NCBI GenBank assembly: GCA_947044365.1
Contig: OX345636.1
Span: forward strand, 38,443,200-38,507,199
Length of the DNA stretch: 64,000 nucleotides
Direction: 5' to 3'
Source: Petrosia ficiformis
Lineage: Eukaryota; Porifera; Demospongiae; Haplosclerida; Petrosiidae
Shown: positions 1-63,324 of the stretch, piece after piece
How the letters are laid out: each line of letters starts with the position of its first letter
Numbering within the stretch: position 1 is the first letter of the stretch
Position numbers and translations under genes: made by a program
Notes under the pieces: generated by a model
Told to the model about the DNA's origin: nothing
The model's database searches: none
The model's input: the letters and a program-made list of their open reading frames with translations, nothing else

Positions 1-141
1 GCCTACAAACCACTGTAGCATCTACACTGCTCCAATAATCATCACAAATAGTACCCCATTCATTGCCGAAACATATTTCCACTCTGCCTTCATTTGAAAC
101 AATTCCATCAACTAAACGAATTTCACCATCACTGCATGGAG
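1..141 (-). CDS. Gene 1 SRCR domain 10, first half (cut by window edge)
   Basis: The acceptor AG lies at 143-142. The exon reads [19 protein letters not shown], then WGTICDDYW, and continues towards VCR at the edge. It resembles the exon 10681-10842 of gene 2, the first half of that gene's last SRCR domain (domain 22). Gene 1 may therefore be near its last SRCR domain here, with any stalk and membrane span to the left of the window. Confidence 0.8.
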
Positions 142-6100: not shown

Positions 6101-6625
6101 ACAAGATGTGTCAAATATAGTGTTAGAAGAGCAAGCTAAGAGTGTATTCTCAGTTCCAGAACAAGCAACATTTTGAAGAGCAATGTCTCCAGTTCCTTGA
6201 CCAAAATAAGCATTGGCATATGCTATACCATCTAAACATAAAGAAGTTGGATGCAATTATGCTTTCATTTGTTCATTCATCATGTATACAGCACACTCCT
6301 ACTTATTGCAAACTCACATCCAGAATATGAATATCCAAGTTGCTTGCAAACCACTCTGGCATCTGCACTCCCCCATCCATCATCACAAACAGTGTACCAG
6401 TTGTTGTTAATACACACCTCTACTCTACCTTCATACACATTAGAGCCTCCTTCTAGCCTTACATCACCATAAGTACACCCTATAATATTATATTCAAACA
6501 TTTAAACACGTACTGAACATGCAAATGCTCTGATATAGTATAGCATATTACCGATTTATTATGCAATCACCTTTGACATTGATAAATGATGCTAGCAGCA
6601 ACACACAGCAGACTGTTAGTTTCAT
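1..6625 (-). CDS. SRCR-array receptor gene 1 (3' end beyond window)
   Basis: Multi-exon gene read right to left. It starts with a 55-nt signal-peptide exon and continues with alternating half-domain exons of 162 or 177 nt (N-terminal half) and 165 or 171 nt (C-terminal half). All introns are phase 1 with GT/AG borders. I count nine complete SRCR domains and the first half of a tenth at the left edge, about 1,070 visible residues. Each domain shows the motif order GDxRLVGG, EGRVE(V/I)C, WGT(V/I)CDD, VCxQLGY, then AxFGxGxGxI(W/F)LD and HSEDAGVxC. SRCR domains are extracellular protein-binding modules. Large SRCR proteins in sponges have been proposed as aggregation or immune receptors, so that role here is inference. 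No membrane span is visible because the 3' end is missing. Its first exons are paralogous to those of the next gene at 7909-27665. Confidence 0.88.
212..2982. repeat. Three tandem 0.92 kb units, each with two SRCR domains' worth of exons
   Basis: The units 212-1135 (924 bp), 1136-2062 (927 bp) and 2063-2982 (920 bp) are nearly identical, including their introns. A few point changes (for example CGA/TGA near 388 and 1312) and small intron indels near 1106, 2041 and 2960 separate them. Each unit carries one domain of each alternating type, so copy-number change keeps the reading frame. Near-identity of introns points to a recent origin or ongoing homogenisation. Confidence 0.9.
212..3402 (-). 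CDS. Gene 1 SRCR domains 3-9 (amplified array)
   Basis: Fourteen exons, right to left: 3226-3402/2983-3147 (domain 3), 2762-2923/2536-2706 (4), 2306-2482/2063-2227 (5), 1835-1996/1609-1779 (6), 1379-1555/1136-1300 (7), 911-1072/685-855 (8) and 455-631/212-376 (9). Two domain types alternate. The 177+165-nt type begins with a [10 protein letters not shown] motif; the 162+171-nt type begins with a GQLRLADG motif. All lengths are multiples of three with phase-1 introns. In domains 5, 7 and 9 the usual QLGY reads QLEY, while domain 3 keeps QLGY. This ties the three copies to one recent amplification. Confidence 0.87.
3470..3864 (-). CDS. Gene 1 SRCR domain 2 (two exons)
   Basis: Exon 3703-3864 is the first half ([19 protein letters not shown], then [10 protein letters not shown]). 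Exon 3470-3640 is the second half ([17 protein letters not shown], ending DAGVRCQG). The two exons and the 62-bp intron between them are almost identical to 23940-24324 in gene 2. The intron differs mainly by a 10-bp indel, and a few coding positions differ. A 2.2 kb intron separates this domain from domain 1. Confidence 0.85.
3865..6066. other. Gene 1 intron, 2.2 kb
   Basis: AT-rich intron between SRCR domains 1 and 2. I see no coding exon, no convincing inverted-repeat element and no RNA gene. Short reading frames here have no recognisable motif. Confidence 0.6.
6067..6479 (-). CDS. Gene 1 SRCR domain 1 (two exons)
   Basis: Exon 6318-6479 encodes the first half (starts [14 protein letters not shown], ends QLGYSYSG). 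Exon 6067-6231 encodes the second half ([17 protein letters not shown], ending DAGVKCEG). It is the most divergent domain of the array. Its closest relative in the window is domain 1 of gene 2 at 26821-27532, which suggests that the membrane-distal domain is orthologous between the two genes while inner domains are reshuffled. Confidence 0.85.
6571..6625 (-). CDS. Gene 1 signal-peptide exon
   Basis: First coding exon of gene 1. The ATG is at 6625-6623 and the exon encodes [19 protein letters not shown] (the last codon is completed by the next exon), a typical hydrophobic secretion signal. It ends in phase 1 at a GT donor (GTGATT), so it joins in frame to the first SRCR exon. I chose this start because the paralogous gene has an equivalent 55-nt exon at 27611-27665, which begins at the same point with [14 protein letters not shown]. 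Confidence 0.85.
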
Positions 6626-7908: not shown

Positions 7909-8116
7909 TTAAAATACACTAGATGATACTGGTTCCTCCATAGTATCATCATTATTATCATCTTCAAAACCAATGTTTTCATCTTTATCCAGTGCTACCA
8001 TATTTGTGATACCACCATCACCTTTGAACGAAGAATTTGAGAATGCTAGAACAGACCTGTTCCCAAGTACATTATCTCCAATTTCATACTGTTTGGAATG
8101 TTTTCCTTTGTAAACA
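7909..8116 (-). CDS. Gene 2 cytoplasmic tail exon and stop
   Basis: Last coding exon, joined in phase 2 to the membrane-span exon. It encodes about 68 residues beginning [15 protein letters not shown] and ending in an acidic stretch ([14 protein letters not shown], then SSSVF), with stop TAA. I recognise no ITAM- or kinase-type motif. The first residues after the membrane are basic (YKGKHSK), as expected for a stop-transfer signal. Confidence 0.82.
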
Positions 8117-11100
8117 CTATTGGATGAATGAAAACAAATTATACTATGTTAAAATTGTAATTAGATACCAAATGTTGTTTTTAAATGAATTTTATGAATT
8201 TTATGAAACATGTCATATAATGCTATAAATATATAATTATTTCATTATAATTATACACATAAGGCACTCACATAAACATCACTACAGCAACAATCAGTAC
8301 AGCAAGAATAACAAACACAATGAGTGTGATAGTAATTCCAGCCACTGCACTTGTAGATAATGCTTGAGAACGACCTGACTCAGAAGTAGTGGACTCAGAG
8401 AATGATATACGTCTGAATCCAGAGCTCTCATAATCACCATTACTAACACCTGCCTAATTGTAGAAGTGAAATTATTCAGTAAACGATGAAACACAGTTGA
8501 TTGATACAAATACGCAATCATAACTACTATTAGTACTAATAGTAACTTACTTCCACTGCATCCTTCATCACATCAAAAGGTAGAATACCTCGTGCACTGC
8601 CATCACCAGTGATAACAAAGAAAGAAATGTCTGTTACACCATTAGAATTAGACTCAATACTTGATATAATAACACAGCTTGTAGTCCCTTCACTGTTGTA
8701 GAAGCACAATACAATTTGAATCATGAATTCACAATAATCTCTATTGTTACTACAACCCTATGTGGAGTTTAAACTCTGAATTTATAATGACATCCAGAAA
8801 TGATTAAACAATGAATTTATAATAAGGATTAGATCTCCTATATGTTATTTATATATGGCGACTCTATTTGTTATGATACACTTTTAACTTTCCATAAAAT
8901 AATTTTACTGTTTTTCTTACCTAGCACCTTCACCAATTCTTATAGGAACACATGCTCGGTTATAAGTTGAACAATAGGTATCAATAATTTTAGCAGTGAC
9001 TTGTTCAAACTCTCCTTGTGCATTTGTGGTGAACTAAATAAATAAGGAAGTAACTATATAAATAATGTCTTCTCTTTATCATCTTGTGTATTTGTACGTC
9101 ATCCATTTGTAACTGTGTATTATCCATACCCTCCCAACTGTCATCTCCCTATGTTCTATAAGTCAGTGTCTCTTTCCATTTCTGTCTATCTATTTGTATA
9201 CAAACAGACAGAGAGACAGACAGACAGACAAGTAATCAAAGTAGAGTTATCGAAGTATACTATAGCTCATGAAGTCTCATATAACTGTCAAAGTCTTACA
9301 ATTCAGAAATTACTTTTTTGCTTTCACAAATTTACTACAACTATCTCTCTCAACCTGTCTGTCTTCTGTTTCTATAAGTAGAAGTCAAGTGTGTGTCTTT
9401 TAATTATATTTTTGCATTCGCAAACTCACAGCAATCACAGTGTAGTCACCCAGTGTAGCCGTTATAGTATTATCTCTCACTACACTGCTAGTGCTTGTAG
9501 ACATATCAACAGAACAAGTTGGTCTTGGAACTGTGCTGGAAGTAGCAATGTGTGTGTTGCTTGACGTGATTGTACTGGAGGATAAGGATGTTGATGTTGT
9601 GCTGACAATACTACTTGAGGATGTAGTACTTAGTGCAGTAGTGGTTGAATATGTAGATGTTGTGGAGAATAATGAGGAAGGTGATGTGGAATGTGATAGA
9701 AAAGATGATGTTTCCTTTGTACTGAATATACTAACTGAGGAAGTTGTAATCAAAGTAGTAACAGATGAATATACAGGAAATGAAGAATACATGGTGGAAA
9801 ATAATGGAGCGGAAGATGCTATTACTGTTGTTGTGACATCATTACTTGAGGACATTGTCATAGACAATGAAGAAACAGTTGTGGAGAGTGATGGTGAAGG
9901 AGATGGGGAAGGAGATGGGGAAGGAGATGAAGTCAATGTTCTGACTAGACTACTTAAGGATGTTGTACTGACTATACTACTTGTACTCAATGTGGTGGAA
10001 GATGAGGATGATGCTTCGTAGGATGGTGCAGATGGTGATGGAGAAGGTATTATAGTTGTTAACGCACTGCTAGAGGAAGTGGTACTCACAATAGTTGATA
10101 GTGAAGTCGTAGATTGTGAGTACGATGATGTAAAGAAGGGTGATGGTGAAGGCGATGGAGAAGGTAAGAATGTGCTGGTAGAGGAAGTGGTACTTGCAAA
10201 AGTTGAGATTGAAGTCACAGATGGTGAAGGTAACGAAGGTGAATATGTAGTTGATGTAGTTGATGTAGTTGATGCAGTAGTGATCACACTGCTTGAAGTA
10301 CTCACAACAGTGGAGACAAAGAATGTTGATACTGAGGACGATATAGATGAAGAAGTTGATGAAGGTGACTGTGATGGAGATACAGAACTAGCAGACTGAG
10401 CCACTGTAAATTAATAAAAACATTCACCTAATTTTGTTTACATATTTGCATATCTTACATTGACACCTGACACCAGCATCTTCCTGATGACCAGTAGAGC
10501 AATAAACATTGTCTGAATCATAAGAACAATCCAGTATACTGCTTTCAGTTCCACTACAACCAACATTGTCTAGGAATATTGTACCACTACCAGCTCCAAA
10601 GTGAGCATTAGTGAATGCCACTGCATCTGTGTATTATAATACATACATCATTAAGTCATTGCACAGTAACTGTTTGGTACCTATGTCTGAATACCCAAGT
10701 TGTCTACAAATAACTGTGGCATCTACATTGGCCCACAAATCATCACAAATAGTACCCCATTCATTATTGAAACATATTTCTACTCTGCCTTCATTTGTGA
10801 CAATTCCTCCAACCAAACGAATTTCACCATCACTGCAGGGAGCTGTGAAATAATTAGAAAATTTAATAACTATAACATGAATCTATAATTAACCTTCACA
10901 GCCTACACTAGCATCTTCTGAGTGACTACAAGTTTCCTCTCCAATAGGACTACTACTACACTGTAGAAGTTTAGTATTACTAGATGTACAAGCAACATCA
11001 TCCAACCAGATCTTTCCACTACCAGCACCAAAATATGCACTACTATAATATTTGCCATCTGTAGCAATAAATGAAGTAATTAAACTTCTCTGGTTATAAT

Positions 11101-12399
11101 TACCAATCAACTCACATCCAGTGTAGGAATATCCTAGTTGTTTACAGACAACAGTGGCATCAACACTTCCCCAACCATCATCACATACTGTTCCCCATGT
11201 GTCATTAATACACACTTCCACTCTACCCTGGTATGGAGTAGAACCATTGTAAAGTCTTACATCACCATAGGTGCAAACACCAGTAGTATTGACTATAAAT
11301 GTAAATGTAAGGAAATGAAACCCCTAATATACAAATAGTCATCTCGTTACCTTGACACCTCACACCCACATCTTCACTATGACCATAGTAACAGTAAATA
11401 TTACTATCAGAAACATATGAACAATCTAGAAGACTAGACTCCATTCCGCTACAACCAACATTGTCCAGAAAAATATCACCAGTACCAGATCCAAAATGAG
11501 CACTTGGAAAAGCCACGGCATCTATAAAAGTAGTGATTGTAAATAAGTAATCAATATCGAAAATCTTGATCAATATTCACAACTACACCTATTGTTAAAT
11601 ATCCCAGTTGACTACAAACAACTTGTGCATCAACAGAAGTGAAAAGATCATCACAAATAGTACCCCATTCATTGCCTAGACATATTTCCACTCTTCCTTC
11701 ATTTGGAATATTTCCTCCAACAAGACGAAGTTGACCATCAGTGCAGGGTGCTAGAACAATAATGAGTGATGTATATAAGTAATATAAACAGTAATACACA
11801 AGTATACCTTCACATCCTACTCCAGCATCTTCTGAGTGACTACAAGTCTCCTCTCCAATAGGACTACTACTACACTGTAGAAGTTTAGTGTTACTAGATG
11901 TACAAGCAACATCATCCAACCAGATCTTTCCACTACCTGAACCAAAATATGCACTACTGTAGTATTTACCATCTGTGAAATGAATTAAACTCATCATGAT
12001 CACTTTATATGATGACGGTTGTACTAATTAACTCACATCCAGTGTAGGCATATCCTAGTTGTTGACATACCACAGTAGCATCAACACTTCCCCAACTATC
12101 ATCACAAACTGTTCCCCATGTATCATTGATACAAACTTCCACCCTTCCTTCATACTGAGTGGAACCACCTACTAGTCTTATATCACCATAGGTACAGACA
12201 CCAGTAGCATTGACTGTAGGTATGATGAAAGAATAAACTGAATTATATTAATAATGGCATTCTATATTTATATATAATTATAATTATATATATATTGGTG
12301 ATAAAAAAATACAAAGGATTTATTATTGTTTTGCGAGTAGGATATAATTATAAATAAATAAATGAATACATAGAGTGTAAAACCAATTATAATTATTAT

Positions 12400-12431
<32 letters not shown>

Positions 12432-12712
12432 ATATATATCTATATATATATATATAGCATGCTACCATGGCAACCGTTTGATGTGGTTAGGTCTTATATT
12501 TTTGTATATAGACCTGTGAATCTTTAATCTATCAGCATACAATATATTGTATATAGTACACTTACAGTTCTTATATAAAACAATATAAAACCTTGGTTTA
12601 GTGTCCTCGGATGTGATATAGCCCTCGCAGGCTCGGGCTATATCACATCCTTGGACACTAAACCTCGGGTCTATATTTTTGTATATAAGACCTGTAAGTG
12701 TACTATATATAT

Positions 12713-12748
<36 letters not shown>

Positions 12749-13063
12749 TCTTATAATGAGATTCATAGCCTGTATATTTTCAATGGGCGTCACAGTTTAT
12801 ATTGTATGTGATTGTGGAAGTCAAAATCAGTCATTTGGCAAATAATAATTTTGTCAAACACTTACATTTAAATGCTTATTATTCAGCCATTTTGTACAGG
12901 TAGCAAACTACATTTGGTATCCAGGAAGAGCAACATGCTCCATCTAGGTACCAAATTTTGTAGGTTACGTGTGCAAAATGGCTAAGTTAGGTTTGCCAAA
13001 ATTCTAATTTACCAAATGACTGATGTCTGCATCCATAGTCACATATATATATACATATATATA

Positions 13064-13101
<38 letters not shown>

Positions 13102-16100
13102 TATCTAATATAATTATATATATATACATATATATATATAATTATTTATTATATTTATATTGTTGTAATTAATAGTGTGTGTTATATATGTCATGTTTCA
13201 GAGGTCTATTATGATGTTATATAAACCTGCCATTAGGAAAGGTATCGTCAAAAGGCCGTAGGCCAATTGGTGATATGGCTTCTGTGTTGAGAGGCTTATA
13301 TCACTAATTAGACTGATGAAATGTATTGTAGCTGATATATTATAAGAGATTCATACCCAAATATCAAATAACACCAAACAGGATACCAAACATCGAGTGA
13401 TTTTTCTTTGTAAGGTTTATATTTCCATGCTATGAGATTTATATGAAAATATATACTTCCATACCCAATTGAAAATGTACGGGCTATGAAACTCATTACA
13501 AGATATTCAATTATATAATGTCACTATACATGTATATTACATAAATTACCTTGACACCTCACACCAACATCTTCATTGTGTCCATAGTAACAGTTTATGC
13601 TGTTACCAGAAACATATGAACAATCCAATAGACTAGATTCCGTTCCACTACAACCAACATTATCCAGAAATATATCGCCAGTACCAGATCCAAAATGAGC
13701 ACTTGAAAATGCCAAAGCATCTGTGGTATGTTTCCCAATTAATATTATACAAATTATAATGTCCATTGATAGCACCTGTTGTTAGATATCCTAATTTTCT
13801 ACAAACAACTTGAGCATCAACAGAAGTGAAAACATCATCACAAATAGTACCCCATTCATTACTTATACAAATTTCTACTCTGCCTTCATTTGGAATGTTA
13901 CCTCCAACAAGACGAATTTCACCATCTGTGCAGGGAGCTGTGGAATGAAAACGAAAGAAGCATTAGTAAGATTTTGCTGTATGGAAATTAACCTTCACAT
14001 CCTACTCCAGCATCTTCTGAGTGACTACAAGTTTCCTCTCCAATAGGACTACTACTACACTGTAGAAGTTTAGTATTACTAGTTGTGCAAGCAACATCTT
14101 CCAACCAGATCTTTCCACTGCCAGCACCAAAATATGCACTACTATAGTATTTGCCATCTGTAAAAAGAAAGGTTATTATAGAATACTTAAGAATGATGTT
14201 TTCTCACATCCGGTGTAGGCATATCCTAGTTGTTTACAAACAACAGTGGAGTCATGACTTCCCCAACCATCATCACACACTGTTCCCCAAGTATCATTGA
14301 TACATATTTCTACTCTTCCTTCATACTCGTTGGAACCTCCCACTAGCCTTATGTCCCCATAGGTACAAACACCAGTAGCATTGACTACAAATAAAGCATA
14401 AAACAATACAGAACCAATAATTAGTAGATTATATATATATATATTAAAATATTATTATTACTGGTTGTACACCTTACCTTGACACCTCACACCAACATCT
14501 TCATTGTGTCCATAGTAACAGTTTATGCTGTTACCAGAAACATATGAACAATCTAATAGACTAGACTCTGTTCCAATACAACCAACATTATCCAGAAATA
14601 TATCACCAGTACCAGATCCAAAATGAGCACTTGAAAATGCCAAAGCATCTGTGGTATGTATTTTTGTAGATAATTAGTTATGGCATTAGGGAAAAGTACC
14701 TGTTGTTGGGTATCCCAGTTTTCTACAAACAACTTGGGCATCAACAGAAGTGAAAACATCATCACAAATAGTACCCCATTCATTACTTATACAAATTTCT
14801 ACTCTGCCTTCATTTGGAATGTTACCTCCAACAAGACGAATTTGACCATCACTACATGGAGCTGAATAAGATGTAAATGAAACACAAATACTGGCAAAAG
14901 TTTAATCAATACTCACCTTCACATCGTACTCCAGCGTCTTCTGAGTGACTACAAGTCTCCTCTCCAATAGGACTACTACTACACTGTAGAAGTTTAGTAT
15001 TACTAGATGTACAAGCAACATCATCCAACCAGATTCTTCCACCTCCTGAACCAAAGTAAGCGCTACCAAATGCTTGACCAGCTGTTTTTGTAACAAAGTT
15101 TTAAATGATAATAATTCACGAAATTTCAATTAACTCACATCCAGTGTAGGAATATCCTAGTTGTTGACATACCACAGTAGCATCAACACTTCCCCAACTA
15201 TCATCACAAACTGTTCCCCATGTATCATTGATACAAACTTCCACCCTTCCTTCATACTGAGTGGAACCACCTACTAGTCTTATATCACCATAGGTACAGA
15301 CACCAGTAGCATTGACTGTTATTGATAAATATTAGAGATACAGTATGTATATAATTATAATATCATTATACCTTGACATCTGACACCTGCATCTTCAGCA
15401 TGGCCGGTAGAGCAAATAACAGAAGCAGCCTTTGAACATTGAGAGAGACCAGTTTCTGATCCAGTGCATGCAACGCTATCTAGAAATATACTTCCAATCC
15501 CAGAACCAAAGTGTGCACTACCAAATGCAACTGCATCTATTAATGAAAATACAATTTAAATTTATGTGGTTTTTCTCATTGTCAGTTCACATTTCTGAAA
15601 TGATAAGAGATTTGTTAAAACTTATTTTTACCTTCAACTGAGTATCCAAGCTGTCTGCAAACAACTGTAGCATCTGGACTGCCCCAGCCATCATCACAAA
15701 CTGTGCCCCATACATTATTCATACATATCTCCACTCTACCTTCATTAGCAATGTTCCCATCCACAAGACGTATTTCACCATTTGAACAAGGAGCTGATTA
15801 CAATATAATAATTATATTACACTATGTATTAAAAAAATCAACAGTAATCATACCTTCACATCTCACTCCAGCATCATCAGAATGTTCACAATTATGACTA
15901 CCAATTGTATTACTAGAACAAGCGCTCAATTCTGTATCAGATGAAGTACAAGCTACATCATCTAACCAGATATTACCAGTTCCTTGACCAAAGTATGCAT
16001 TAGAAAATGCCTCGCCATCTGTTTAATTGAAAAGAGTAATAGAAACTTCCAACCTAAATATCTTCAGCAACAAATGTATAAAACTAATTAATTAACTTTA

Positions 16101-31322: not shown

Positions 31323-32354
31323 TTATGACACTAGTCTTGCTGAGACAGGAATCAGTTGACTGCGAGGGGTCTGAACATAACAAAGATAAGCAGCTGATTG
31401 CCACCGACCCAGCATCTGGATAGTTGAGTCTTCTATGCCCTTCTGGGCAGCTGTTGTGGCTGCTCCAATCCTAAAGCTATGACCATTGAATCGAGTGTGG
31501 TCTACTCCGAGTTGTGACAACGCCTCCTTTAAGGCTGCGACCAGCCGAGCCCTAGTCAAATATGACCCATCCTGGTAGGTGAACAATGGGCCATGGCCTT
31601 TCGGTCGCACTGCCAAGAATGAAGTGAGTGCCTTAACGGGACACACAATGTCTCCAGTCCTTCCCATGAAAAGTGTGACCCCCAGGCGAAAAGGGTCTGT
31701 TTTACTCTGTTTTAGTGTCACTGCCAACGTGGTAGGGTTGTTGTGAGTGTGAAGTGCTATGTCTGACAACAGAAGTGTAGACTGTGGGTCATATGAGTCC
31801 TGTGACGGAGCCGTCCGCTCACCAGAGCGTAGAAATCCAAAAAAGGCTACACAACAAGCAGCCCACAATAAGTGAGTGTCAGGGTTGTTGGCTACCTCTG
31901 CCCACACACTATGCATTCTGCGTAGAATATCAGGGGTAATTGGTAATCGCTGCTGGGTAGGTGTTGGGGTAGGAGAACGACGGATTCCCTTAAGCACATA
32001 TTCTAGCCGAGGGAAGGCACCAGGGGAAAAAGGGTCTGCAAAACCATGAGAGATCTGTAAATGCCGAATGGCCGACAGGTAACACTTAATGGACTGGTAC
32101 TTCAACTGCTGAGCAGACAAATAGGAAACATATCTACACAATTTTATTTCTGATAGAGGAAGGGGTGGAATATTACATGTATGACAGAAGATGAGATATC
32201 TCTGCTTTGCTGATGCGTATGTTCGTGTAGTTGAAGGGGCTAGACCCTTGTCAAAGAGCTCTTTAGCCAATGCATCCAGCCTGGGGACATCCAATCCGAC
32301 TTCCGAACTAATACCAGGTCCACCCACTGGGGGGGTATGCGAGTCTGGCTCCAA
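31323..32354 (-). CDS. Tyrosine recombinase of the Ngaro-type element
   Basis: 343 codons, apparently intact. The N-terminal part (LFDKGLAPSTTRTYASAKQR) looks like a SAM-like core-binding domain. The catalytic part shows the first Arg in FFGFLRSGE, then the box HSFRIGAATTAA (H-x-x-R), GRWQSAAY and a Tyr shortly after. This is the R...HxxR...Y set of tyrosine recombinases. In DIRS-order elements this enzyme inserts a circular DNA intermediate instead of an integrase. Its start overlaps the end of the RNase H frame by about 115 nt in another frame. Reads on the minus strand like the rest of the element. Confidence 0.88.
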   Translation of the reverse strand: MEPDSHTPPVGGPGISSEVGLDVPRLDALAKELFDKGLAPSTTRTYASAKQRYLIFCHTCNIPPLPLSEIKLCRYVSYLSAQQLKYQSIKCYLSAIRHLQISHGFADPFSPGAFPRLEYVLKGIRRSPTPTPTQQRLPITPDILRRMHSVWAEVANNPDTHLLWAACCVAFFGFLRSGERTAPSQDSYDPQSTLLLSDIALHTHNNPTTLAVTLKQSKTDPFRLGVTLFMGRTGDIVCPVKALTSFLAVRPKGHGPLFTYQDGSYLTRARLVAALKEALSQLGVDHTRFNGHSFRIGAATTAAQKGIEDSTIQMLGRWQSAAYLCYVQTPRSQLIPVSARLVS

Positions 32355-34019: not shown

Positions 34020-34160
34020 ACATGCACCATGCGACTGGTCATAATAACTTTCTCATATGTTAATGATGGTAATAGACATGATCAAATTTAACGCAAAACA
34101 AATAAATAATGAATAGATAACACAACACTGCTTATAGACTAATTAGGTCCTGTCCTGTAT

Positions 34161-37667: not shown

Positions 37668-37736
37668 CGGGTATGGATAAGTTCAACTTAGCCCATATTT
37701 CAACACGCCTACCAATTAGGAAGCATCACTGATCAT

Positions 37737-44480: not shown

Positions 44481-45109
44481 ATCTCTATATCTTGAAAAGT
44501 CAACTTCATGCTGCGCACTGATGCTATTTAAAACAAAATATATTATAATGTATGTCATGACTTTTATAAACATTCTGTTACTAAGTGGTGTGCTCAGGTT
44601 ACTGTTTAACACATGTGTGCTAATATGTGGTTCCCATGGAAACATTTGCAAAGCTCAAACGTTTCCATGGCATGATTTAGTAACACACCCAGTGTGTTAA
44701 ACAAAAACAGCAATCTGGGCACACCATTTTTGAATATTGGATAGAAGGGTTTAATACTGTAGGTTGGAATAAGCAATCATAGAATTTACTTGAAATTAAG
44801 CAATTCTATAACTATGGTCATGCCAAATGTGTGAATTACAATGGATTAATGCACTCAGGTTATACAACTTTACGACTGAGAAGCAAGAAAAAATTGGGGA
44901 AAAAGATATTTTTACAAATTGCAACAAATTATCATATCCACCTAAATAATTGAACATACATGTACTTAAACAAAAACCATAGACGACAATATTTACCTTT
45001 GGGAGATCCTGCAGTTTGTCGAAAGGATACATTTTGAATGGTAACAAACTCATTATCCGTCTTAGGATCTTTCTGAACAAATGAATAAAATCCATTTCTT
45101 TTACATCTC
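44387..45109 (-). CDS. Gene 3 cytoplasmic tail (two exons)
   Basis: Exon 44997-45109 ([20 protein letters not shown], then [17 protein letters not shown]) and exon 44387-44523 ([15 protein letters not shown], a run of twelve Asp, then [19 protein letters not shown], stop TGA). The Asp run is coded by a (CAT/ATG)n microsatellite at 44437-44484, so its length is likely to vary between individuals. The RCKR after the membrane span fits the cytoplasmic side. Confidence 0.82.
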
Positions 45110-48100
45110 CTGTGATGATTTAACATGTGTTGATGAACGTAATATTTATATTATAGACATACATCATACACACATGAATACATACACATGAACACACATA
45201 CACACACCACACACACACCATCATAATCTGCACATGTAAATGCACACATGCACACAGACACACAAACAGACACAAACACACAAACGAATACAGATAGACA
45301 CACACCAGATGCAGCAGGCCAATATAGTAATAAGAACAATCAATAGAAGTGCTCCCAGTACCACTCCAATCACAATACCAGCAATCTGACCAGCAGACAA
45401 TCCCTCATCATCATCATCTCGTGGTGTTGGAGATGGAGTTGGTGGAGGAAACAGTAGAGTGACAGAGAAGATTATGAAGTCAGTATAAGCACCATTAGCT
45501 ATTGCTTGCTAAATGAAGAAATAAAAGTGATAATTAAACAAAACAAGTGTTTTGGGAAACGAGGATAGAAAGAGTCAAACACATCCCCTTCCAAAACATT
45601 AAATTAAATTTGAAACATGGAACAGGAGTTCAAATGTTTGTTCAAATATTTCATTACTAACTAATCAAATACTAGTATATGCTGGATATTACAGGATATA
45701 TTTTTGTAGGCCATAATATTATAACTGAATAATGAAATACAGCATATTCTAATAATTATTATTAATTATTATTAAGAGTGATCGTACCACAAATTAATTA
45801 AATACATGTACGTTTCAGTGAATCAAACCTGAACTATATAATTATACCAGTGTTGTTTATCCTGTGTCATGTTGAAATTATGCTGATTTGCAGTTTTCAG
45901 TATAATTATCATTACGTTTGTACAATTTGCTATAACAAATTTCATCCAAGATGGATGGCAATCACACATTTTTAAAAGATTTTTCTGATAGCGAAAGCAT
46001 GTGAAAAAAAACATTATTTGCCAAATGACTGATTTTCGTATCCACAGTCACAAATTGTAAGCATATTGGATAGACAACAGCTAAAATACAAAATAATGCA
46101 ATTCATATAATTTATATCTCAGACACTAAACACTCAACAAAACAATAAACATATTATGCTTACTTCAACAGCATCAAGAACTGCTTGTGCATTAAATACT
46201 CCTTCTCCAGTTCTTCTAGCAAAAAGTGTGATTTCTAGACCATTAGGAGTATTTTCTGTCATATAGATCACAACTTCAACCATTGTAGCTTGTCTAAATA
46301 CAATAGAAACAAGCATGTATTATTTCATTATAATAATTATAATTTATATATACATGTATATATACACGTGTACATGTACATGTATATTCAGGAGCGCATG
46401 AATCCCAAGGAGCGTACAACAGCTATATGAAAGCTGTATCAACCTTTGTCGAACGAAAGTACTTGAGATAATGATATTCATAGTGTGTTTCAAGTGCTAG
46501 TGGTAAACATACACGCCTAGCGCTGTATCCTGCATGTGATACAAATGGCGACAAAACGAGAAAAAAGCTGCTAAACGTACTACATGTATATACTAGACGG
46601 CTGTTGAAGAAGAAGATGAAGTATCTTATAAGTAGTGTGAGAGAAGTGGATGCTGTTCATTTCATGAGCAACTAACCTTCCTTGGAAGTTCTTGTGAAGA
46701 CTCCGTCGTTGTTTTGGCCTGTAGCCTTTTCTTTTTGGGCTGCCACTTATTTTTTAACCTTTATACTCTTCGTTGCCTCTTGAGGTAGTGAAGCAAGCGA
46801 TGTTGATCTGGTTCTCTTCATGGGACGTAGGCTCACTACAGCTGCCTTTCTTTTTCCTAACTCGTTAGTGTATACTATACTAGTACTGCACGTGCATTGG
46901 GCACAGTTTGTCAATACATTTTTGTGATCGTCAGCCACTTAGCGCCTCCGACTTGTTTGCTAAGTGTCTGCCCATATATGGGCATTTTGTGCAATTTGTT
47001 GGACAAAGGTTGACACAGTGTTTTATTTAGCAGTTGTACGCTCCTTCCCCGCCTTTGGCGGGATTCATGCACTCCTGATATATTATATGTACAATATCTT
47101 AATGTAATATTTATAAATTATGGTTGGCAGAGTATTATTTAGTTGCATAGGAGCCCAAGGTAAAGGCAAGAGGAGCTTTGTATGTAGAAACATCCAAAAC
47201 TGGTGTGATAAATCAGATAGAGTGTTAACTACATGTATACCATAAACGATATAGCTTAGTTATTAGTTATAATTATGATATATGCCAAAACAGGTTCCAT
47301 ATGCAGAGATATAGACCTAACCATATCAAACAGTTGCCAAACTTGCCATGGTAGCATACACTATACATAATATTATGGACAACCACATAAAGTTCTGAAT
47401 GAACAGTGTTGCTATATGTAATAATTATAGTTATAGTTAAATCACTAGTGTGAGTGTAGTACTGGAAATATAACACAAGCAAAACAGGAGCTTTAAATGG
47501 TTTATACATGTAGTAGTTTGAATTGATAGTAGGGCTGGGAATCGGCTGAGATTCTAAATCGATTATCACTAACTTCAAATCAATTGGTAAAATCAGTGGA
47601 AGTAATTAGGCCAATTACATGTAAGTCAATTAATACTGAAAACTCCTCCCATTTAATGATCAAAAAGGCTTCCTGTCACTTCCATAATGTACATTATTTT
47701 AGGGGTGGACGGTATCTCGATAATTAGTCACCTTTATCGATATTAGTTGATTTTAGTCAATACAATACCATTATTTTTGTTTAATCGATATATCGTTACC
47801 GACAAAGTGAACATGTTGGTCTTTTTAGCAAAGAACCTTAATTGATTAATGTACATTTGTAGTTTAAACATGTATATAGCCTACACCTTTATTGTTTAGT
47901 TAAGACTTCCTTTGCACGTATAAATAAGGTCAGCAGTTGTTATAGCTTGATAGGGGATACAAAGAAAACTGTATCAAGAGTATGACACCCATTTGTGTAC
48001 ATGTTCAGTAAGATCTTAGTCATACAAAAGTAGTTAATTGTATTTACTATTAGTCAATATTAGTCATTATCGTGATAATAGAAATTTAGTTATTCAATAT

Positions 48101-51100
48101 AAAAAAAATCAATATCGTCCACCCCTACATTATTTACTATCACATGCTTGAAAAGTATGTCTTTTGGAATAATTAGCATAATCGATATCACAGACTTACA
48201 TGTAGAATCGATAATCAAAAGTATTTTCAATATTGATTGAGTAATCGATTAATCAATTAATCATCCCAGCCCTAATTGATAGATATCACCAGTGTTGTGG
48301 AGAGGAATGAATTATTAATTATTTGAATTTCATTCACTAAACCCAAATGTTTTCCAGTGCTGTGAACAACATCCAGAAAATATGGAACCGGATATGGTAC
48401 CAACTGTGCTATATATGGAAAATATACACATGTAGCACTGTCAGTACTTTTGATGTTAAGCGTCATAGTGATATAACCTTATATAATACATCATTGTGTA
48501 CTGTTTACCTCTTGAAAAAGTGTGAAAATGCTCGGTGAACATTTCTTTTACTCACAATACTGGAATTATCATTTGGAATAATGTCACACTCATCAGGATT
48601 TTGTAGACAATATTCATTGATAGCCTCGGCAGTTATGATAATGAATGCATTCTGTCTCTCTTCAGTGAACTAGTGGATATTATATATACATGTATGTACA
48701 TATATTTATAATTCGTTTTATACTTCCAATGTAATTATACAGAATATAATGTAATTATAGAAAAATATACATGTAAATACAGTTAGATAGACATGTAGAT
48801 AAATATACGTGTAAATACAGTTAGATAGACATGTAGATAAATATACGTGTAAATACAGTTAGATAGACATGTAGATAAATATACGTGTAAATACAGTTAG
48901 ATAGACATGTAGATAAATATACGTGTAAATACAGTTAGATAGACATGTGTACAATGTAAGTAGATAGATAGAAGGCTTAATGAATAGAAAGATTATAGTG
49001 AATAGACATCAACAGACAAGTAAATTACTGACTATGAATGATTTGTATGCCTGTACTTGAACACAACTTACACTTTCTGTTGTTTCATTGCTTAATGTGA
49101 TCACAATACTATTTTCCCGTTCTACATCAGTAGGTGTTAGTGGTGGAGGTGGTGGTACTATTAAATGAAATAGAAATAGCTAGAGCATCATTACAGATTA
49201 ATCTAAATACTTAATTATAGTTACATCAGGCCTGAGGGCCATTGGGTATGAGAGTGGGGCATTATCACAGTGACAATATATTCCATGTGTGCATGAGGCT
49301 GAGTATAATATATAACAATAATGAAGCATAAAAGTTTTCTTGTTGTGTGGACTATTCTTTTCCAGTACTTTCGCCTAGATGCCAACATTTCTTATAGCAT
49401 TGTGGTTATACCACATGCCATTTGTTGGTTTGTCAGCCCTTTGATTATTAGCTACACGTACATGTACTGTATAATTAAAGATTCATTGTTCAATCATTAA
49501 GATTTCACACACTAACCATATAAATATGCTTGGAAGGGAAATTATTTAAAATGTTAGTAACTCATTTTATACAATTAGATTTTTGAGACAGTGAACAATT
49601 CTGTAAATTTGCAAAGGAGGCTACATGTATATGGGTATTCAAATGGACCAATAGTTATGGATACCAACTGATTTCTTAACTATAGTCACATACATGTACA
49701 TGTATAGTAGTGTTGTTTTGGTTAACTTTGTGACTTCTAGGTACATTGTAATTAAACTGTAACTAAATTACAAGTCTACTGCACTAACTATAACTAACTA
49801 AAATGAAAATTGGCCAATAATGGGTACTTTTAGTCAGTTAACTAAAACCCTTTTTGTAAGCCTATTATTGTTTTAGTCAATTAAACTGAACTAAAAGTTT
49901 GAGAAACCAGGCATACTATAACTACAACTAAAAGTGGTCGCTATAGCTAGTCATACTAAAACAACACTAATGTATAGTTAAGAAGTAGTCAGTGTCATAT
50001 GTTAGAATTTTTATTTTACAAGTACAATATGGGCACATACCAACTATAATAATTACACATGTTCCATTTTCATTTAGACTACTACCAGGTGGACATGAAC
50101 ATGTGAAACTACCAGGTGGTGTGTCTTGACAAATCTGTGTACGATTACATACTGAGGGAATCTGAAGACAATCTGGAAAATCTGTATAAAATAATGAATA
50201 ACATGAAATTTCATATAACAATGAAACTACATGTACATGATGATTTATTATTTATTGTACATCTTTCATAAATGTGTGCAATTATTGTATAATTACAGTT
50301 CATGAAATACAATTATATAATGTGTGAATATATACATGTAAATATAATTTATAAAGTTATACATTTTTTTTAAAATTTTTTGAAGAAAGAGCATGTAGGG
50401 ATATCAAAACCCAAAAAGCATAGAAATGAGATTTGGAAGGTATCTGAGCAACAAAATTAATCTAACCAATCATAGACTTCCACACAACAACTGTACATAC
50501 ATGTACACTTCCACATACATGTACATGTACATGTATACATGTATAAGTAGGGATGTTATAACGAATATATTTTCAGAAAGACAAACTATAGTACATGTGT
50601 AGTTGTGTGTAAGAATGGTAAGAAAGATATATAAATATATATCCCGATACGGTGAAACATCAAAGTAAACCATAGGTTTATATACATGTATCAGATATAG
50701 CACCCTGTGGTCAGATATAGCACTGTGTGGTCAGATATAAAACCTGCCGTCGAAACAGACTACAAGAAAACAACGCTTACCTTCTTCAAAGTGCCGACAA
50801 AAAGGTAGGAGAAGTTCAACAAAGGTTTTGTATTCCGTGAAATATATTAATTATAACACGCCTACTCGTGCTATAACAGAATTATAATCACCTCATCCTC
50901 GCGCCTACGGCCCTCGTGCTCTGTGATTATAAATCTGATATAGCACTCATAGGGTGTTATAACCTACATGTATACATATGTACAGTATATATAATATACA
51001 TGTATTATATACAGTACACATCAGATGCAACTTAAGAGGCACACTCGTATAGAACGCGTGCGCATTTTTGGCGAACGCGTACAATGTTTTTTCGAACGCG

Positions 51101-62200: not shown

Positions 62201-63324
62201 CACAATGCATACTCACACAAGTGACACAAACATAATTAATATACATGTACATGTAGTTCGAACCCATGGGAAAGCAATTATAGGGATAGCCATAAAAAAT
62301 AAAAGTATAATTCTCATGCATAATAATAAAGCTAACCTATAATTTCCTGATCATCATTATTTTGATTATTAGTACTAGCAGTGTTTTGAGCAAGTGCTTC
62401 ATTACTGGTTTGGGTGAAATCAAATAGACACTCAAGATTCTCATCACCTCCACATACTTCAATAGCATCTGCTAGTGTTTCAGGTGGAATTTCATCCAGA
62501 AATATTGGCATGTGGTTAGGATCTGAGAATGTACTTACACTTTCACCAACCTCATAGAAGAACAAAGATTCCTCTTGTGTAATTTGCCCTGATAATTAGG
62601 AAGATACAGACATAATATTGATACGTAAAGAAAGCAAACAGTTTTACTAGAATTTTAAAATTTCTAAACAGACTAGTTACAAGTAAGATCCTACTTAGGA
62701 TTTCATACAAGGTTTTAGTTAGGCCGAAAAGCCTAATCAGTAGTATCACCTTATTTAAATACTGTACATAAAATCATATGAGCATATAAATTTGCAAATC
62801 TGTAGTGTTTGTGTATTAAAATATTAAAATGCAAATGATTATTTTGAGGAGGGGGAAAGATCCCCATGATTATCTTCTGTTTGTAGTATGTATAATCACT
62901 ACATTGTTAATTATTATTTACGCACATTTTTCTATTATCTTCAATTGGCAATTCTACTAATCACTCTCATTAACTCACATGTTTGTCCAAGTACATGTTT
63001 CTCTCTATCAGGAATATTATCAGATGCAATTGTTCCATTTCTGTACATCAAATCATTTGTATCATCACCATCAAAATTTCCCAAAAGTCCTGTCACTGTT
63101 CCCCTAAATTCTTCTGGTATTTTGAGCAAAGCTGATAGTGTTCCTTCTCTAAGTGACACCTCAAGTGTTATTGTGCTCTGAAATGATGCCAAAATTGTGT
63201 CTTCAGCAGTCCTCTCTAACATCACAGAATCATTCATGTAAGTATCGTTAACTGAAATGAGTATGCCTGTTATATCTTCTCCATTTATCCTCACTAGTAA
63301 CTCTTCATTGGGATCAATCTCGAC
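44387..63324 (-). CDS. VWD / EGF-repeat transmembrane protein gene 3, MUC4/SUSD2-like (5' end beyond window)
   Basis: Sixteen exons with agreeing phases give 856 residues plus a stop; the N-terminus is off the right edge. Order from the N-terminal side: von Willebrand type D (VWD) domain (62979-63324, 62337-62588), a cadherin-like region (61458-61729), an EGF-like segment (59414-59510, 56596-56751), five further EGF-like exons (56061 down to 50041), a Pro-rich linker plus juxtamembrane module (49072 to 46164), the membrane span (45306-45508) and a cytoplasmic tail with a poly-Asp run. VWD followed by a Cys-containing segment and EGFs before a membrane span is the plan of MUC4/SUSD2-type proteins, which act in adhesion and barrier roles. 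The sponge function is unknown. The splice site between 48552-48669 and 46164-46288 is the least certain. Confidence 0.85.
45306..45508 (-). CDS. Gene 3 membrane-span exon
   Basis: It encodes [18 protein letters not shown], a Pro-rich linker ([17 protein letters not shown]), then the span [18 protein letters not shown] ending LACCIW. It starts in phase 0 and ends in phase 2, the same as the membrane-span exon of gene 2 (8272-8453). The Cys pair at the inner edge could be palmitoylated; this is inference. Confidence 0.85.
46164..49157 (-). CDS. Gene 3 Pro-rich linker and juxtamembrane module (three exons)
   Basis: Exons 49072-49157 ([16 protein letters not shown], then [10 protein letters not shown]), 48552-48669 ([20 protein letters not shown], then C...C) and 46164-46288 ([24 protein letters not shown], ending AVLDAVE). 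The layout matches gene 2 exons 9430-10403 (end), 8921-9033 and 8551-8692. The middle junction needs the donor inside GTGA/GTAAAAG and the acceptor at ACAAG/CTACA to keep frame. The alternative pair (ATT/GTGAGT with TTTAG/ACAAG) breaks it. Confidence 0.72.
46389..47077. mobile_element. Inverted-repeat element with a small basic reading frame
   Basis: The left end CAGGAGCGCATGAATCCC pairs with the right end GGGATTCATGCACTCCTG at 17 of 18 positions. A second pair, AAGGAGCGTACAAC with GTTGTACGCTCCTT, lies just inside. A minus-strand frame at 46747-46938 ([20 protein letters not shown], later [18 protein letters not shown]) encodes 63 residues with basic clusters but no recognised domain. No clear target duplication. 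It sits in a gene 3 intron. Confidence 0.7.
47530..48274. mobile_element. hAT-type non-autonomous element, interrupted by a second one
   Basis: Ends TAGGGCTGGGAATCG and CATCCCAGCCCTA are inverted, and both sides carry the exact 8-bp duplication ATTGATAG (47522-47529 and 48275-48282). The interior is rich in ATCGAT motifs and non-coding. Another element is nested at 47700-48127. Confidence 0.87.
47700..48127. mobile_element. Nested hAT-type non-autonomous element (428 bp)
   Basis: Ends TAGGGGTGGACGGTAT and ATATCGTCCACCCCTA are inverted, with the exact 8-bp duplication CATTATTT at 47692-47699 and 48128-48135. It inserted into the older element 47530-48274. Interior non-coding. Confidence 0.87.
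48766..48957. repeat. 38-bp minisatellite, about 4.7 copies
   Basis: The unit AAATACAGTTAGATAGACAT followed by GTAGATAAATATACGTGT repeats without unique spacers in a gene 3 intron. Copies are nearly identical. Confidence 0.88.
50041..50181 (-). CDS. Gene 3 EGF-like exon (membrane-proximal)
   Basis: Phase 1-1 exon: [38 protein letters not shown]. It has six Cys in EGF order but no DxDE calcium motif at its start. It is followed after splicing by the Pro-rich linker. A hydrophobic VIII follows the last Cys. Confidence 0.82.
50851..50962. repeat. Hairpin element (TTATAACAC arms)
   Basis: Left arm TTATAACACGCCTACTCGTG then CTAT and TTATAATCAC; right arm GTGATTATAAATCTGATATA then GCACTC and GTGTTATAA. 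The arms pair with small bulges. The arm core is shared with 52306-52413, but the tips and loop differ. Confidence 0.7.
51012..52195. mobile_element. Tc1/mariner-type inverted-repeat element (1.18 kb), non-coding
   Basis: Ends CAGTACACATCAGATGCAAC, then TTAAGAG, and the exact complement at the right, flanked by TA on both sides (51010-51011 and 52196-52197). Subterminal regions carry clusters of ACGCGT (about 51053, 51074, 51095, 51139 on the left; 52115, 52136, 52159 on the right). No transposase frame was recognised inside. Confidence 0.82.
52306..52413. repeat. Hairpin element (GTTATGTCATGCC arms)
   Basis: The left arm GTTATGTCATGCCCAC, then ATATCAGGCTTATAAT, pairs with the right arm ATTATAAACCTGATAT, then GTGGCATGACATAAC. 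It shares the inner arm GATTATAAACCTGATATAGC with 50851-50962 (one base differs), while the outer arm sequence is different but still self-complementary. Confidence 0.72.
52590..52715 (-). CDS. Gene 3 calcium-binding EGF exon
   Basis: Phase 1-1 exon beginning [17 protein letters not shown], then [17 protein letters not shown], ending FTCEG. The DIDEC start and the xCxxGFxL pattern are those of calcium-binding EGF domains. Confidence 0.87.
52795..52830 (-). pseudogene. Possible EGF exon remnant
   Basis: Short sequence reading DVDECVC on the minus strand after an AG, then a CA-repeat. It resembles the first residues of the calcium-binding EGF exons on either side, but nothing of the rest survives. 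It could be chance. Confidence 0.3.
53083..53730. mobile_element. Tc1/mariner-type non-autonomous element (648 bp)
   Basis: The left end CAGTATATGTCAAAAAAAAC, then TTTACGTTT and GTAGTACGAC, and the right end with the complementary GTCGTACTAC, AAACGTAAAG and CATATACTG. TA flanks both sides (53081-53082, 53731-53732). The interior contains no recognised frame. Confidence 0.82.
53929..54078 (-). CDS. Gene 3 EGF-like exon (longer loop)
   Basis: Phase 1-1 exon: [17 protein letters not shown], a longer insert ([15 protein letters not shown]), [17 protein letters not shown]. It has six Cys in EGF order. The second loop is extended compared with the neighbouring EGFs. Confidence 0.85.
54454..55034. 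mobile_element. hAT-type element with transposase remnant and internal repeats
   Basis: Ends CAGGGTTGGGTCAAGCCCT and AGGGCTTGACCCATCCCTG are inverted, flanked by ATAGATAT / ATAGACAT (7 of 8). Inside are a short-period AAGCTC array and about three 36-bp units containing CCCCTCAAATACATGTATGT. The minus strand 54760-54880 reads [20 protein letters not shown], then RPDRCRLSD, the C-terminal dimerisation motif of hAT transposases. Confidence 0.85.
55102..55224 (-). CDS. Gene 3 calcium-binding EGF exon
   Basis: Phase 1-1 exon: [33 protein letters not shown], ending RTCEG. A typical calcium-binding EGF signature. Confidence 0.87.
56061..56186 (-). CDS. Gene 3 calcium-binding EGF exon
   Basis: Phase 1-1 exon: [34 protein letters not shown], ending ITCSG. 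A (TG)n run at about 56230-56262 lies in the intron just upstream. Confidence 0.87.
56596..56751 (-). CDS. Gene 3 EGF-like exon with split start
   Basis: Phase 1-1 exon: [48 protein letters not shown]. Its first Cys completes the EGF-like unit begun in exon 59414-59510 (ICPEG, then WEGQFC), so this exon spans two EGF-like modules. Confidence 0.83.
56913..57369. mobile_element. hAT-type element with transposase C-terminal remnant
   Basis: Ends TAGTGCTGGGCGATAT and ATATTGCCCAGCACTA are inverted, with the exact 8-bp duplication ACAGACAC (56905-56912 and 57370-57377). The minus strand at 57047-57190 reads [20 protein letters not shown], then SLKPTKVN, then VFLAKNL. This is the hAT C-terminal dimerisation region. 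It is a deletion derivative of a larger element. Confidence 0.9.
57481..57700. repeat. Short tandem repeat, ~85-100 bp unit, about 2.5 copies
   Basis: Repeated stretches GGTAACCATGTGTC, GGATCCTTTAAAGGAA and ACATCCCTTCAAC. The copies are diverged. The context is a gene 3 intron, non-coding. Confidence 0.7.
58480..59275. repeat. Tandem array, ~115-bp unit, about seven copies
   Basis: Units contain GGAACTCTGTCCAGGGATTA, CTGTGACATAACTCATGGGA, TCCTCCGGACTGTATT and TCATGCTCTGTGACATAACT. The half-units resemble each other (both contain CTGTGACATAACTCATGGGA followed by TCCTC), so the array arose from a shorter ancestral repeat. It occupies the intron before exon 59414-59510. Confidence 0.88.
59414..59510 (-). 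CDS. Gene 3 EGF-like exon, first part
   Basis: Starts in phase 0 and ends in phase 1: [20 protein letters not shown], then [12 protein letters not shown]. The CxNGGSC and CxCPEG motifs are those of a non-calcium EGF. The final Cys is supplied by exon 56596-56751 (WEGQFC). Confidence 0.83.
59751..59930 (+). pseudogene. hAT-related N-terminal transposase fragment
   Basis: Plus-strand copy of the sequence at 60817-60980, starting ATGGCCACGTTGTTTAAT. It reads [14 protein letters not shown], a stop-containing stretch, then [17 protein letters not shown] and stops. It lacks the zinc-binding part found in the other copy. No terminal repeats were recognised around it. Confidence 0.6.
60648..61251. 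mobile_element. Nested hAT-type element (604 bp) with transposase N-terminal part
   Basis: Ends CAGGGTGGCAGA and TCTGCCACCCTG are perfect 12-bp inverted repeats, flanked by the exact 8-bp duplication GTTCCAAC (60640-60647, 61252-61259). It carries the plus-strand frame 60817-61080. Confidence 0.9.
60817..61080 (+). pseudogene. hAT transposase N-terminal zinc-finger fragment
   Basis: Frame from ATG at 60817: [19 protein letters not shown], a stop codon, then [51 protein letters not shown] and a stop. The FQxxW...Y...GVMFCxxC pattern is the start of a TTF/BED-like zinc finger seen in hAT transposases and ZNF862/KIAA1586-like proteins. Only the N-terminus remains. Confidence 0.68.
61458..61729 (-). 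CDS. Gene 3 cadherin-like / Ig-fold region
   Basis: Single exon of about 90 residues: [47 protein letters not shown] and [18 protein letters not shown]. The pattern of alternating hydrophobic strands with DPD and ANDSSG is that of a cadherin-like or putative-Ig fold as found after VWD in MUC4-like invertebrate proteins. The exact family cannot be fixed from sequence alone. Confidence 0.7.
61925..62300. repeat. Interspersed repeat, uninterrupted copy of 16490-17170
   Basis: Matches in order: CAGTAATCATGGCTGA, ATTTCAGGTAGAATAGCTA, TTAGTTCCAGTTTCTACGTA, GAATGACGCAACTTCC and CATGGGAAAGCAATTA. It lies in the intron between 61458-61729 and 62337-62588. It shows the pre-insertion state of the site occupied by the element at 16686-16971. 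Confidence 0.72.
62337..63324 (-). CDS. Gene 3 VWD domain and following Cys segment (two exons)
   Basis: Exon 62979-63324 encodes the VWD core: [71 protein letters not shown], ending HVLGQT. Exon 62337-62588 continues [17 protein letters not shown], then [18 protein letters not shown]. The [13 protein letters not shown] box and the W...SLFxYxxG...CLFD sequence are the signature of the VWD and post-VWD region in MUC4/SUSD2-like proteins. Confidence 0.87.

What the first reader, a model, noticed from the sequence alone, without database searches (positions are those of the whole stretch)
8272..9033. Juxtamembrane cassette shared by two receptors with unrelated ectodomains
Gene 2 (SRCR) and gene 3 (VWD/EGF) both end with the same series: a linker ending in phase 0, an exon starting F-T-x(3)-Q/A and containing a YC...C pair, an exon ending DAVE, a membrane-span exon (phase 0 to 2) and a tail exon. 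The hydrophobic patterns of the module align (NGVTDISFF with [14 protein letters not shown] with VLDAVE). This suggests a mobile C-terminal exon cassette, possibly with a common proteolytic or assembly role, placed under different binding arrays.
Basis: partly seen in the sequence, partly recalled or inferred. Interest (0 to 1): 0.75.

Follow-up and report, generated by a model that had tools for sequence, protein, structure and literature searches.

The report
Shared juxtamembrane module of sponge receptors
In a stone sponge, cell-surface receptors with quite different outer parts share one small unlisted domain just outside the membrane, related in predicted shape to the SEA and Notch-type domains that control receptor cutting, so the sponge appears to fit different sensors onto one common base.

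Summary
Gene 2 (SRCR) and gene 3 (VWD/EGF) end in the same linker-B-C-TM exons with identical intron phases. The modules are homologous without the TM (hhalign 98.4%, score 86.2; best of 100 shuffles 20.7).

The genome matches Petrosia ficiformis. The module occurs at 53 places (at least 51 loci), 43 in 4.7 Mb of chromosome 1, behind SRCR, VWD/EGF, EGF-array, Frizzled-CRD and, below Pfam threshold, somatomedin-B-like ectodomains; in Amphimedon behind IgGFc_binding+EGF and NIDO/VWD+EGF.

The self-cleavage motif is absent (0 of 24). A dibasic KR follows the cysteine pair in 34 of 37 exon-B sequences, but not in the SRCR type that includes gene 2.

Proteolytic function is inferred. Replacement of ectodomains on a conserved base fits better than a jumping cassette.

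The parts
9430..10403 (-). gene 2: Ser/Thr-rich linker exon (phase 1 to 0); its last residues [13 protein letters not shown] are the predicted first beta strand of the module
   Evidence: bounds read; linker end and start phases; SRCR exon before it ends in phase 1
8921..9033 (-). gene 2: exon B (phase 0 to 2), FTTNAQ...YCSTYNRAC..., predicted helix 1; no dibasic site
8551..8692 (-). gene 2: exon C (phase 2 to 0), SEGTTSC...ISFFVI...MKDAVE, predicted strands 2-3 and helix 2; third cysteine
8272..8453 (-). gene 2: exon D (phase 0 to 2), predicted strand 4, stalk and transmembrane span
7909..8116 (-). gene 2: last exon, cytoplasmic tail ending ...PVSSSVF-stop
10424..10630 (-). gene 2: open frame holding the last SRCR half-domain before the linker (ORF bounds, not exon bounds)
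   Evidence: Pfam SRCR 34.2 bits over cut-off 26.1
50041..50181 (-). gene 3: last EGF exon before the linker, ends in phase 1
   Evidence: bounds and EGF assignment by eye
49072..49157 (-). gene 3: linker exon (phase 1 to 0), ends [13 protein letters not shown] = predicted strand 1
48509..48669 (-). gene 3: exon B (phase 0 to 2), FTEERQ...YCLQNPDEC...SKR..., helix 1 and dibasic KR loop
46164..46293 (-). gene 3: exon C (phase 2 to 0), [10 protein letters not shown]...NGLEITLF...VLDAVE
45306..45508 (-). gene 3: exon D (phase 0 to 2), strand 4, stalk and transmembrane span
44997..45109 (-). gene 3: first cytoplasmic exon (further tail exons not located)
62944..63324 (-). gene 3: C-terminal part of the VWD domain (ORF bounds)
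   Evidence: Pfam VWD 39.1 bits over cut-off 22.9

Best explanation
Genes 2 and 3 belong to one sponge family of type I receptors built on a common C-terminal base: Ser/Thr- or Pro-rich linker, a juxtamembrane SEA-like (ferredoxin-like) domain spread over the linker end and exons B, C and the start of D, a TM span, and a short tail. The N-terminal sensing array (SRCR, VWD/EGF, EGF, Frizzled-CRD, somatomedin-B-like, IgGFc_binding) is the replaceable part, joined by a phase-1 intron. Shown: homology, exon phases, copy number (lower bound), the range of ectodomains by neighbourhood, the absence of GS[VI][VI]V. Supported by one low-confidence model: the fold. Inferred: in most members a proprotein convertase cuts at the conserved KR in the alpha1-beta2 loop, leaving two halves held by the fold, so that the domain works like Notch's SEA-like domain, controlling shedding or signalling when the sensor is pulled; SRCR-type copies such as gene 2 have lost this site, gained a cysteine, and probably serve as an uncut, pinned version.
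Confidence: 0.6

Rival explanations
1. The module is only a structural stalk or dimerisation piece. It is conserved because it folds and positions the ectodomain; the KR loop is a basic patch and no processing takes place.
For: No GS[VI][VI]V; the three SRCR-type copies lack KR yet keep the module; P4 of the site is rarely basic (list); several of the matched juxtamembrane domains are not known to me as cleaved at this loop (recalled).
Against: KR is kept in 34 of 37 exon-B sequences and in both complete Amphimedon modules although the rest of the loop varies in length and sequence; both conserved cysteines lie N-terminal of it, so a cut would not be bridged by them.
Confidence: 0.3
2. A jumping cassette: the linker-B-C-D-tail block itself was copied into existing receptor genes at many places.
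For: Members on chromosomes 1 and 14 and at isolated places on chromosome 1 (33.67, 45.41, 52.08 Mb); the 52.08-Mb copy is 89% identical to the 40.12-Mb VWD/EGF copy but has no EGF exon that I could see in the about 6.4 kb read upstream; the block could move through its phase-1 intron.
Against: 43 of 53 places lie within 38.36-43.05 Mb of chromosome 1, as tandem duplication predicts; modules group mostly by ectodomain type in the tree; the Amphimedon pair share EGFs plus module and differ at the N-terminal side; the 52.08-Mb copy lacks a canonical exon-C acceptor and may not be a working gene.
Confidence: 0.2
3. Chance resemblance of two TM-proximal low-complexity regions, or convergence.
For: Identity is only 30% over 92 aligned positions between gene 2 and gene 3.
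Against: Profile score far above shuffles without the TM, intermediate members (Fz, SMB-like, Amphimedon) and identical intron positions and phases.
Confidence: 0.01

Closest known systems
SEA domain (Pfam PF01390; MUC1, MUC16, Gpr126)
   Different: No Pfam SEA match; GS[VI][VI]V absent in 24 of 24; has a conserved YC...C pair and, in most members, a dibasic loop between helix 1 and strand 2.
Divergent SEA-like juxtamembrane domains (ICA512/phogrin, Nup54, dystroglycan and others; Pei and Grishin 2017, title seen only in a reference list)
   Different: No convincing sequence similarity found in the PDB; here one module recurs behind many ectodomains in one genome.
Notch heterodimerisation (SEA-like) domain of the NRR
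   Same: Juxtamembrane SEA-like domain with a convertase-type site in a loop of variable length (Notch: PMC2726630, passages read).
   Different: No LNR/Notch family in the three Amphimedon proteins scanned; the site is KR/RKR rather than a clear furin site and is absent from gene 2.
ACE2 neck (collectrin-like) domain
   Different: Sits under a peptidase; 14% identity; role in dimerisation and transporter binding (recalled).
MUC4-type NIDO/VWD/EGF membrane mucins
   Same: Ectodomain of gene 3 (VWD; EGF by eye) and Amphimedon P0045/P0046 (NIDO or VWD, C8-3_MUC4, EGF).
   Different: AMOP not detected in P0044-P0046; the sponge proteins have the SEA-like module between EGFs and TM.

Membership tests
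SEA domain (PF01390) | match to the Pfam SEA profile | tested here: not met
   no SEA hit in 3 spliced modules, in 10 of 10 modules at E up to 10, or over cut-off in the genome (exon-split genes limit that test)
SEA domain (PF01390) | GSxxV (x = V or I) autoproteolysis site | tested here: not met
   0 of 24 modules (two SMB-like rows have a looser GS..V elsewhere, before helix 2); motif definition from PMC9478142 (passages); non-cleaving SEA domains exist, so this alone does not exclude membership
SEA-like (divergent SEA) superfamily, fold only | b-a-b-b-a-b ferredoxin-like fold, Amphimedon copy P0044 | tested here: met
SEA-like (divergent SEA) superfamily, fold only | same fold in the SRCR-type copies of the window | tested here: inconclusive
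SEA-like (divergent SEA) superfamily, fold only | juxtamembrane extracellular position | tested here: met
   exon D carries strand 4, a short stalk and the TM in both genes; TM helix 1060-1093 follows strand 4 at 1029-1036 in P0044
Notch NRR | LNR repeats next to a SEA-like domain | tested here: not met
   no Notch/LNR family listed for P0044, P0045, P0046 at E up to 0.01
Notch NRR | convertase cleavage in a loop of the SEA-like domain | tested here: inconclusive
   KR present in 34 of 37 exon-B sequences, absent in gene 2; cleavage itself cannot be tested with these tools
Notch NRR | ADAM and gamma-secretase cleavage after ligand pull | not testable with these tools
   needs cell assays
MUC4-like proteins (gene 3) | VWD and EGF domains | tested here: met
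   VWD 39.1 bits over cut-off at window 62944-63324; EGF exons of gene 3 itself by eye only, EGF families in Amphimedon relatives
MUC4-like proteins (gene 3) | NIDO and AMOP domains in gene 3 itself | not tested
   the 5' part of gene 3 lies beyond the window; NIDO is found in Amphimedon P0045, AMOP in none of three

The most novel reading that the evidence does not exclude
Haplosclerid sponges run much of their receptor repertoire on one plug-in, Notch-like proteolytic base: a single SEA-like, convertase-primed juxtamembrane domain onto which evolution fits immune-type (SRCR), Wnt-type (Frizzled-CRD), mucin-type (VWD/EGF) and other sensors, with an uncut, cysteine-pinned version for SRCR receptors. 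This would be a natural counterpart of synthetic-Notch engineering.
Probability: 0.22. Interest if true: 0.85.

Novelty: new variant of a known kind. Interest (0 to 1): 0.6.

Why it matters
It defines an unlisted juxtamembrane domain family shared by receptors usually catalogued separately by their ectodomains. It gives an anchor by which sponge receptor genes with different sensors can be recognised as one family, suggests how new receptors arise (a phase-1 intron between a replaceable sensor and a fixed base), and makes testable whether regulated juxtamembrane proteolysis was a general plan in early-branching animals and not special to Notch. Surveys that classify sponge receptors by ectodomain, such as the SRCR survey PMC10855680 (passages read; the word juxtamembrane does not occur in it), would be expected to miss it.

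Tried and rejected
Pfam SEA search of the whole genome: one match at E 1, which on reading was an unrelated open frame. NCBIfam: nothing near a cut-off. PDB by sequence: none for the Amphimedon module; MHC class II beta and others at E 0.089 and worse for the profile, taken as chance. A weak Pfam KIAA1549 match over the P0045 module (E 0.001, 18 bits against 24) was not used because it includes the TM. Weak Pfam hits are all below cut-off and fall mainly on TM, stalk or tail. AF2 of P0001: unusable, VIA on it only the TM helix. Foldseek against viral models: two matches at E below 0.001, both long poor alignments (rmsd 43-48), ignored. Absence of Notch, EpCAM or protocadherin from the 50 VIA rows says nothing. 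Ig-likeness of the exon upstream of the 52.08-Mb copy: suggested by eye, not supported (V-set 12.7 bits against 26 for one frame, none for the other; PDB nothing convincing). Somatomedin-B: cysteine spacing by eye, 11.4 and 12.4 bits against 23.1, so kept only as 'like'. Tree: only 5 of 21 inner branches well supported; SRCR needs two changes on the module tree and is one clade in 4% of bootstraps, but the second SRCR row (L058) is a long branch. Search in other phyla: three protein searches gave, below E 1e-4, proteins named as Amphimedon and unnamed lgn, ena or sourceless fragments; weaker rows looked to be driven by the TM stretch. Paper searches found no paper with all their terms; in the listings of 53, 103 and 104 (titles and starts of abstracts) I saw no description of this module. 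Pei and Grishin 2017 was not held, so overlap with it is not excluded.

Full report
Source. The window is G000:C1:38443200-38507199 of a 191,215,263-base assembly. Length, the 63,279,122-base first contig and the 6,019,071-base C14 match the published Petrosia ficiformis assembly odPetFici3.1 (191.25 Mb, chromosome 1 63.28 Mb, chromosome 14 6.02 Mb; PMC12648040, passages read). The identification is by size only.

Observation. Both genes lie on the minus strand. Gene 2 ends with linker 10403-9430, exon B 9033-8921, exon C 8692-8551, exon D 8453-8272 and tail 8116-7909. Gene 3 ends with linker 49157-49072, B 48669-48509, C 46293-46164, D 45508-45306 and a first tail exon 45109-44997 (linker bounds of gene 2 read). 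These junctions are GT-AG and the phases agree: linker enters in phase 1 and ends in 0, B 0 to 2, C 2 to 0, D 0 to 2. P0001, a protein without introns from an unnamed 1698-base contig of the lgn source, contains the same joins in a close paralogue, which suggests, but does not prove, expression.

Homology. With the TM left out, a profile of 3 SRCR-type modules against a profile of 7 EGF-type modules gives hhalign probability 98.4%, E 6.9e-15 and score 86.2; 100 column shuffles reach at most 20.7. On re-checking I found that one EGF-type row (L012) carried an assumed junction residue; without it the result is 97.9%, E 4.9e-13, score 76.0, shuffle maximum 20.7. Gene 2 and gene 3 share 30% of 92 aligned positions.

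Splice signals across copies. Over distinct copies the expected signal stands directly at the boundary in 39 of 39 exon-B starts, 33 of 33 exon-B ends, 25 of 30 exon-C starts, 35 of 35 exon-C ends and 22 of 22 exon-D starts (gene 2 and the 45.41-Mb copy are not among the 33 and 30 but agree). The 5 exceptions are one near-identical group (L012-L016, at 39.87-40.18 and 52.08 Mb): no AG at the aligned start of exon C, so these copies may be broken or use another acceptor. The linker exon starts in phase 1 in 7 of the 8 copies displayed; the eighth start was not located.

Copies. Searches of the genome by single proteins gave 53 places with exon B or C by my count, two of which (around C1:42.70 and 42.95 Mb) look like a second exon C in a locus already counted, so at least 51 loci. 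The tool scores only the best candidates, so this is a lower bound. 43 of the 53 lie at C1:38.36-43.05 Mb; the rest are 6 on C14 (5.0-5.1 Mb), two at C1:33.67-33.69, one at 45.41 and one at 52.08 Mb.

Ectodomains. I read DNA upstream of 24 copies and for one more used the position of a Pfam hit. SRCR: 4 (gene 1, gene 2, the 45.41-Mb copy, L058; Pfam SRCR over cut-off for gene 2 and L058; the others by eye). VWD/EGF: 4 (gene 3 and L042 with Pfam VWD over cut-off; L040 and L050 with EGF families, and by eye the same further exons as gene 3). EGF: 8 with a Pfam EGF-family match at E 1e-4 or better (10 of 10 frames given matched, 9 of 10 over a curated cut-off), plus 2 by eye (L051, L054). Frizzled CRD: 2 (L057, four Fz domains in the piece read, E 9.5e-108, five in the whole frame; and the copy at 38582875 with an Fz domain 4 kb upstream). 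Somatomedin-B-like: 2, below Pfam cut-off. No recognisable domain: 3 (L041 with L015, L043 with only 2 kb read, L047). Except for gene 2, gene 3 and L057, where I checked the joining phases, these rest on same-strand neighbourhood.

Amphimedon queenslandica has the module too: P0044 (IgGFc_binding and EGFs), P0045 (NIDO, C8-3_MUC4, EGFs) and P0046 (VWD, C8-3_MUC4, EGFs; module cut short), all predicted proteins from public sources. So the sharing of the module by different ectodomains is not a peculiarity of one assembly.

What moves. On a tree of 24 modules the EGF/VWD type, the SRCR type and the Fz/SMB type form groups of varying support (5 of 21 inner branches well supported). SRCR ectodomains occur in two places (one clade in 4% of bootstraps; one of the rows is a long branch). 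Because the copies are clustered and the modules group mostly by ectodomain type, I prefer tandem duplication of a receptor gene with occasional replacement of its N-terminal exons through the phase-1 intron before the linker. SRCR and EGF modules are usually bounded by phase-1 introns (recalled), which would make this easy. The 52.08-Mb copy, 89% identical to the 40.12-Mb VWD/EGF copy but without a visible EGF exon in the 6.4 kb read upstream, may be a recent case, or a broken copy.

Cleavage features. SEA domains that cut themselves have GSxxV with x = V or I (PMC9478142, passages). None of 24 modules has it (two SMB-like rows have a looser GS..V before helix 2). Instead, 34 of 37 distinct exon-B sequences have a KR or RKR shortly after the YC...C pair, in the loop between helix 1 and strand 2 (RKR at 967-969 of P0044). 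The three exceptions are gene 1, gene 2 and the 45.41-Mb SRCR gene, which carry a third cysteine at the start of exon C; one KR-bearing copy, L037, also has further cysteines. Both conserved cysteines precede the KR, so a cut there would leave chains joined only by the fold, as in Notch, whose S1 site lies in a variable loop outside the core of its SEA-like domain (PMC2726630, passages). SEA-like juxtamembrane domains of several receptors act as proteolytic switches in a reporter assay (PMC6586460, passages). I infer, with moderate belief, that EGF-, Fz- and SMB-type members are convertase-primed switches and that SRCR-type members are an uncut version. L058, the other SRCR-linked copy, does keep a KR. 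Nothing here shows cleavage.

Verdict. Observation confirmed. The SEA-like reading is supported provisionally; self-cleavage is not expected; a shared proteolytic role is plausible for most members but not for the very copy at the given coordinates. The module is a new variant of a known kind (SEA-like juxtamembrane domains), unusual for its number of copies and the range of sensors set on it.

Noticed in passing
window 1-6500 and 10400-27600, minus strand: Two tandem SRCR receptor genes (gene 1 running out of the window, gene 2) built of repeated, near-identical SRCR units (period about 925 bases at 1-3400); looks like recent unequal duplication.
   Followed up: partly
window 31323-35252, minus strand: Retroelement-like frames inside intergenic DNA of higher GC: tyrosine recombinase (Pfam Phage_integrase), reverse transcriptase (RVT_1) and a zinc-knuckle frame, an order that recalls DIRS-type elements; similar sequence near 30.4-31.1 and 35.9-36.4 kb by eye.
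   Followed up: partly
window 36822-37679, minus strand: A 285-aa frame with a sulfotransferase domain (Pfam Sulfotransfer_5, 44.2 bits over cut-off 23.2).
   Followed up: partly
C1:42695404 and C1:42947216: A second exon C downstream of the TM exon at two paralogous EGF-array loci: duplicated exon, pseudo-exon or alternative exon.
   Followed up: no
L012-L016 (C1 39.87-40.18 and 52.08 Mb): Five near-identical copies lack an AG at the aligned start of exon C although their other splice signals are intact: broken copies or another acceptor.
   Followed up: partly
window 7909 (gene 2 C-terminus), L007, L058, P0002, P0044, P0045: C-termini ...SVF...TNF...TFL...TIL fit class I PDZ ligands (motif recalled); the 45.41-Mb copy ends ...EPV and does not.
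   Followed up: partly
L042 893-1010 (C14 5.05 Mb): The VWD domain of a C14 VWD/EGF member has a GDPH sequence (CWGDPHIRTVDG), a motif recalled as a cleavage site in MUC2/MUC4-type VWD domains; Amphimedon P0045 and P0046 have WGDPHI.
   Followed up: no
L041 247-681 with L015 (C1 52.08 Mb): A signal-peptide-like start and an unrecognised ectodomain exon just upstream of a module that is 89% identical to a VWD/EGF-type one; possibly a recent ectodomain replacement, possibly a broken copy.
   Followed up: partly
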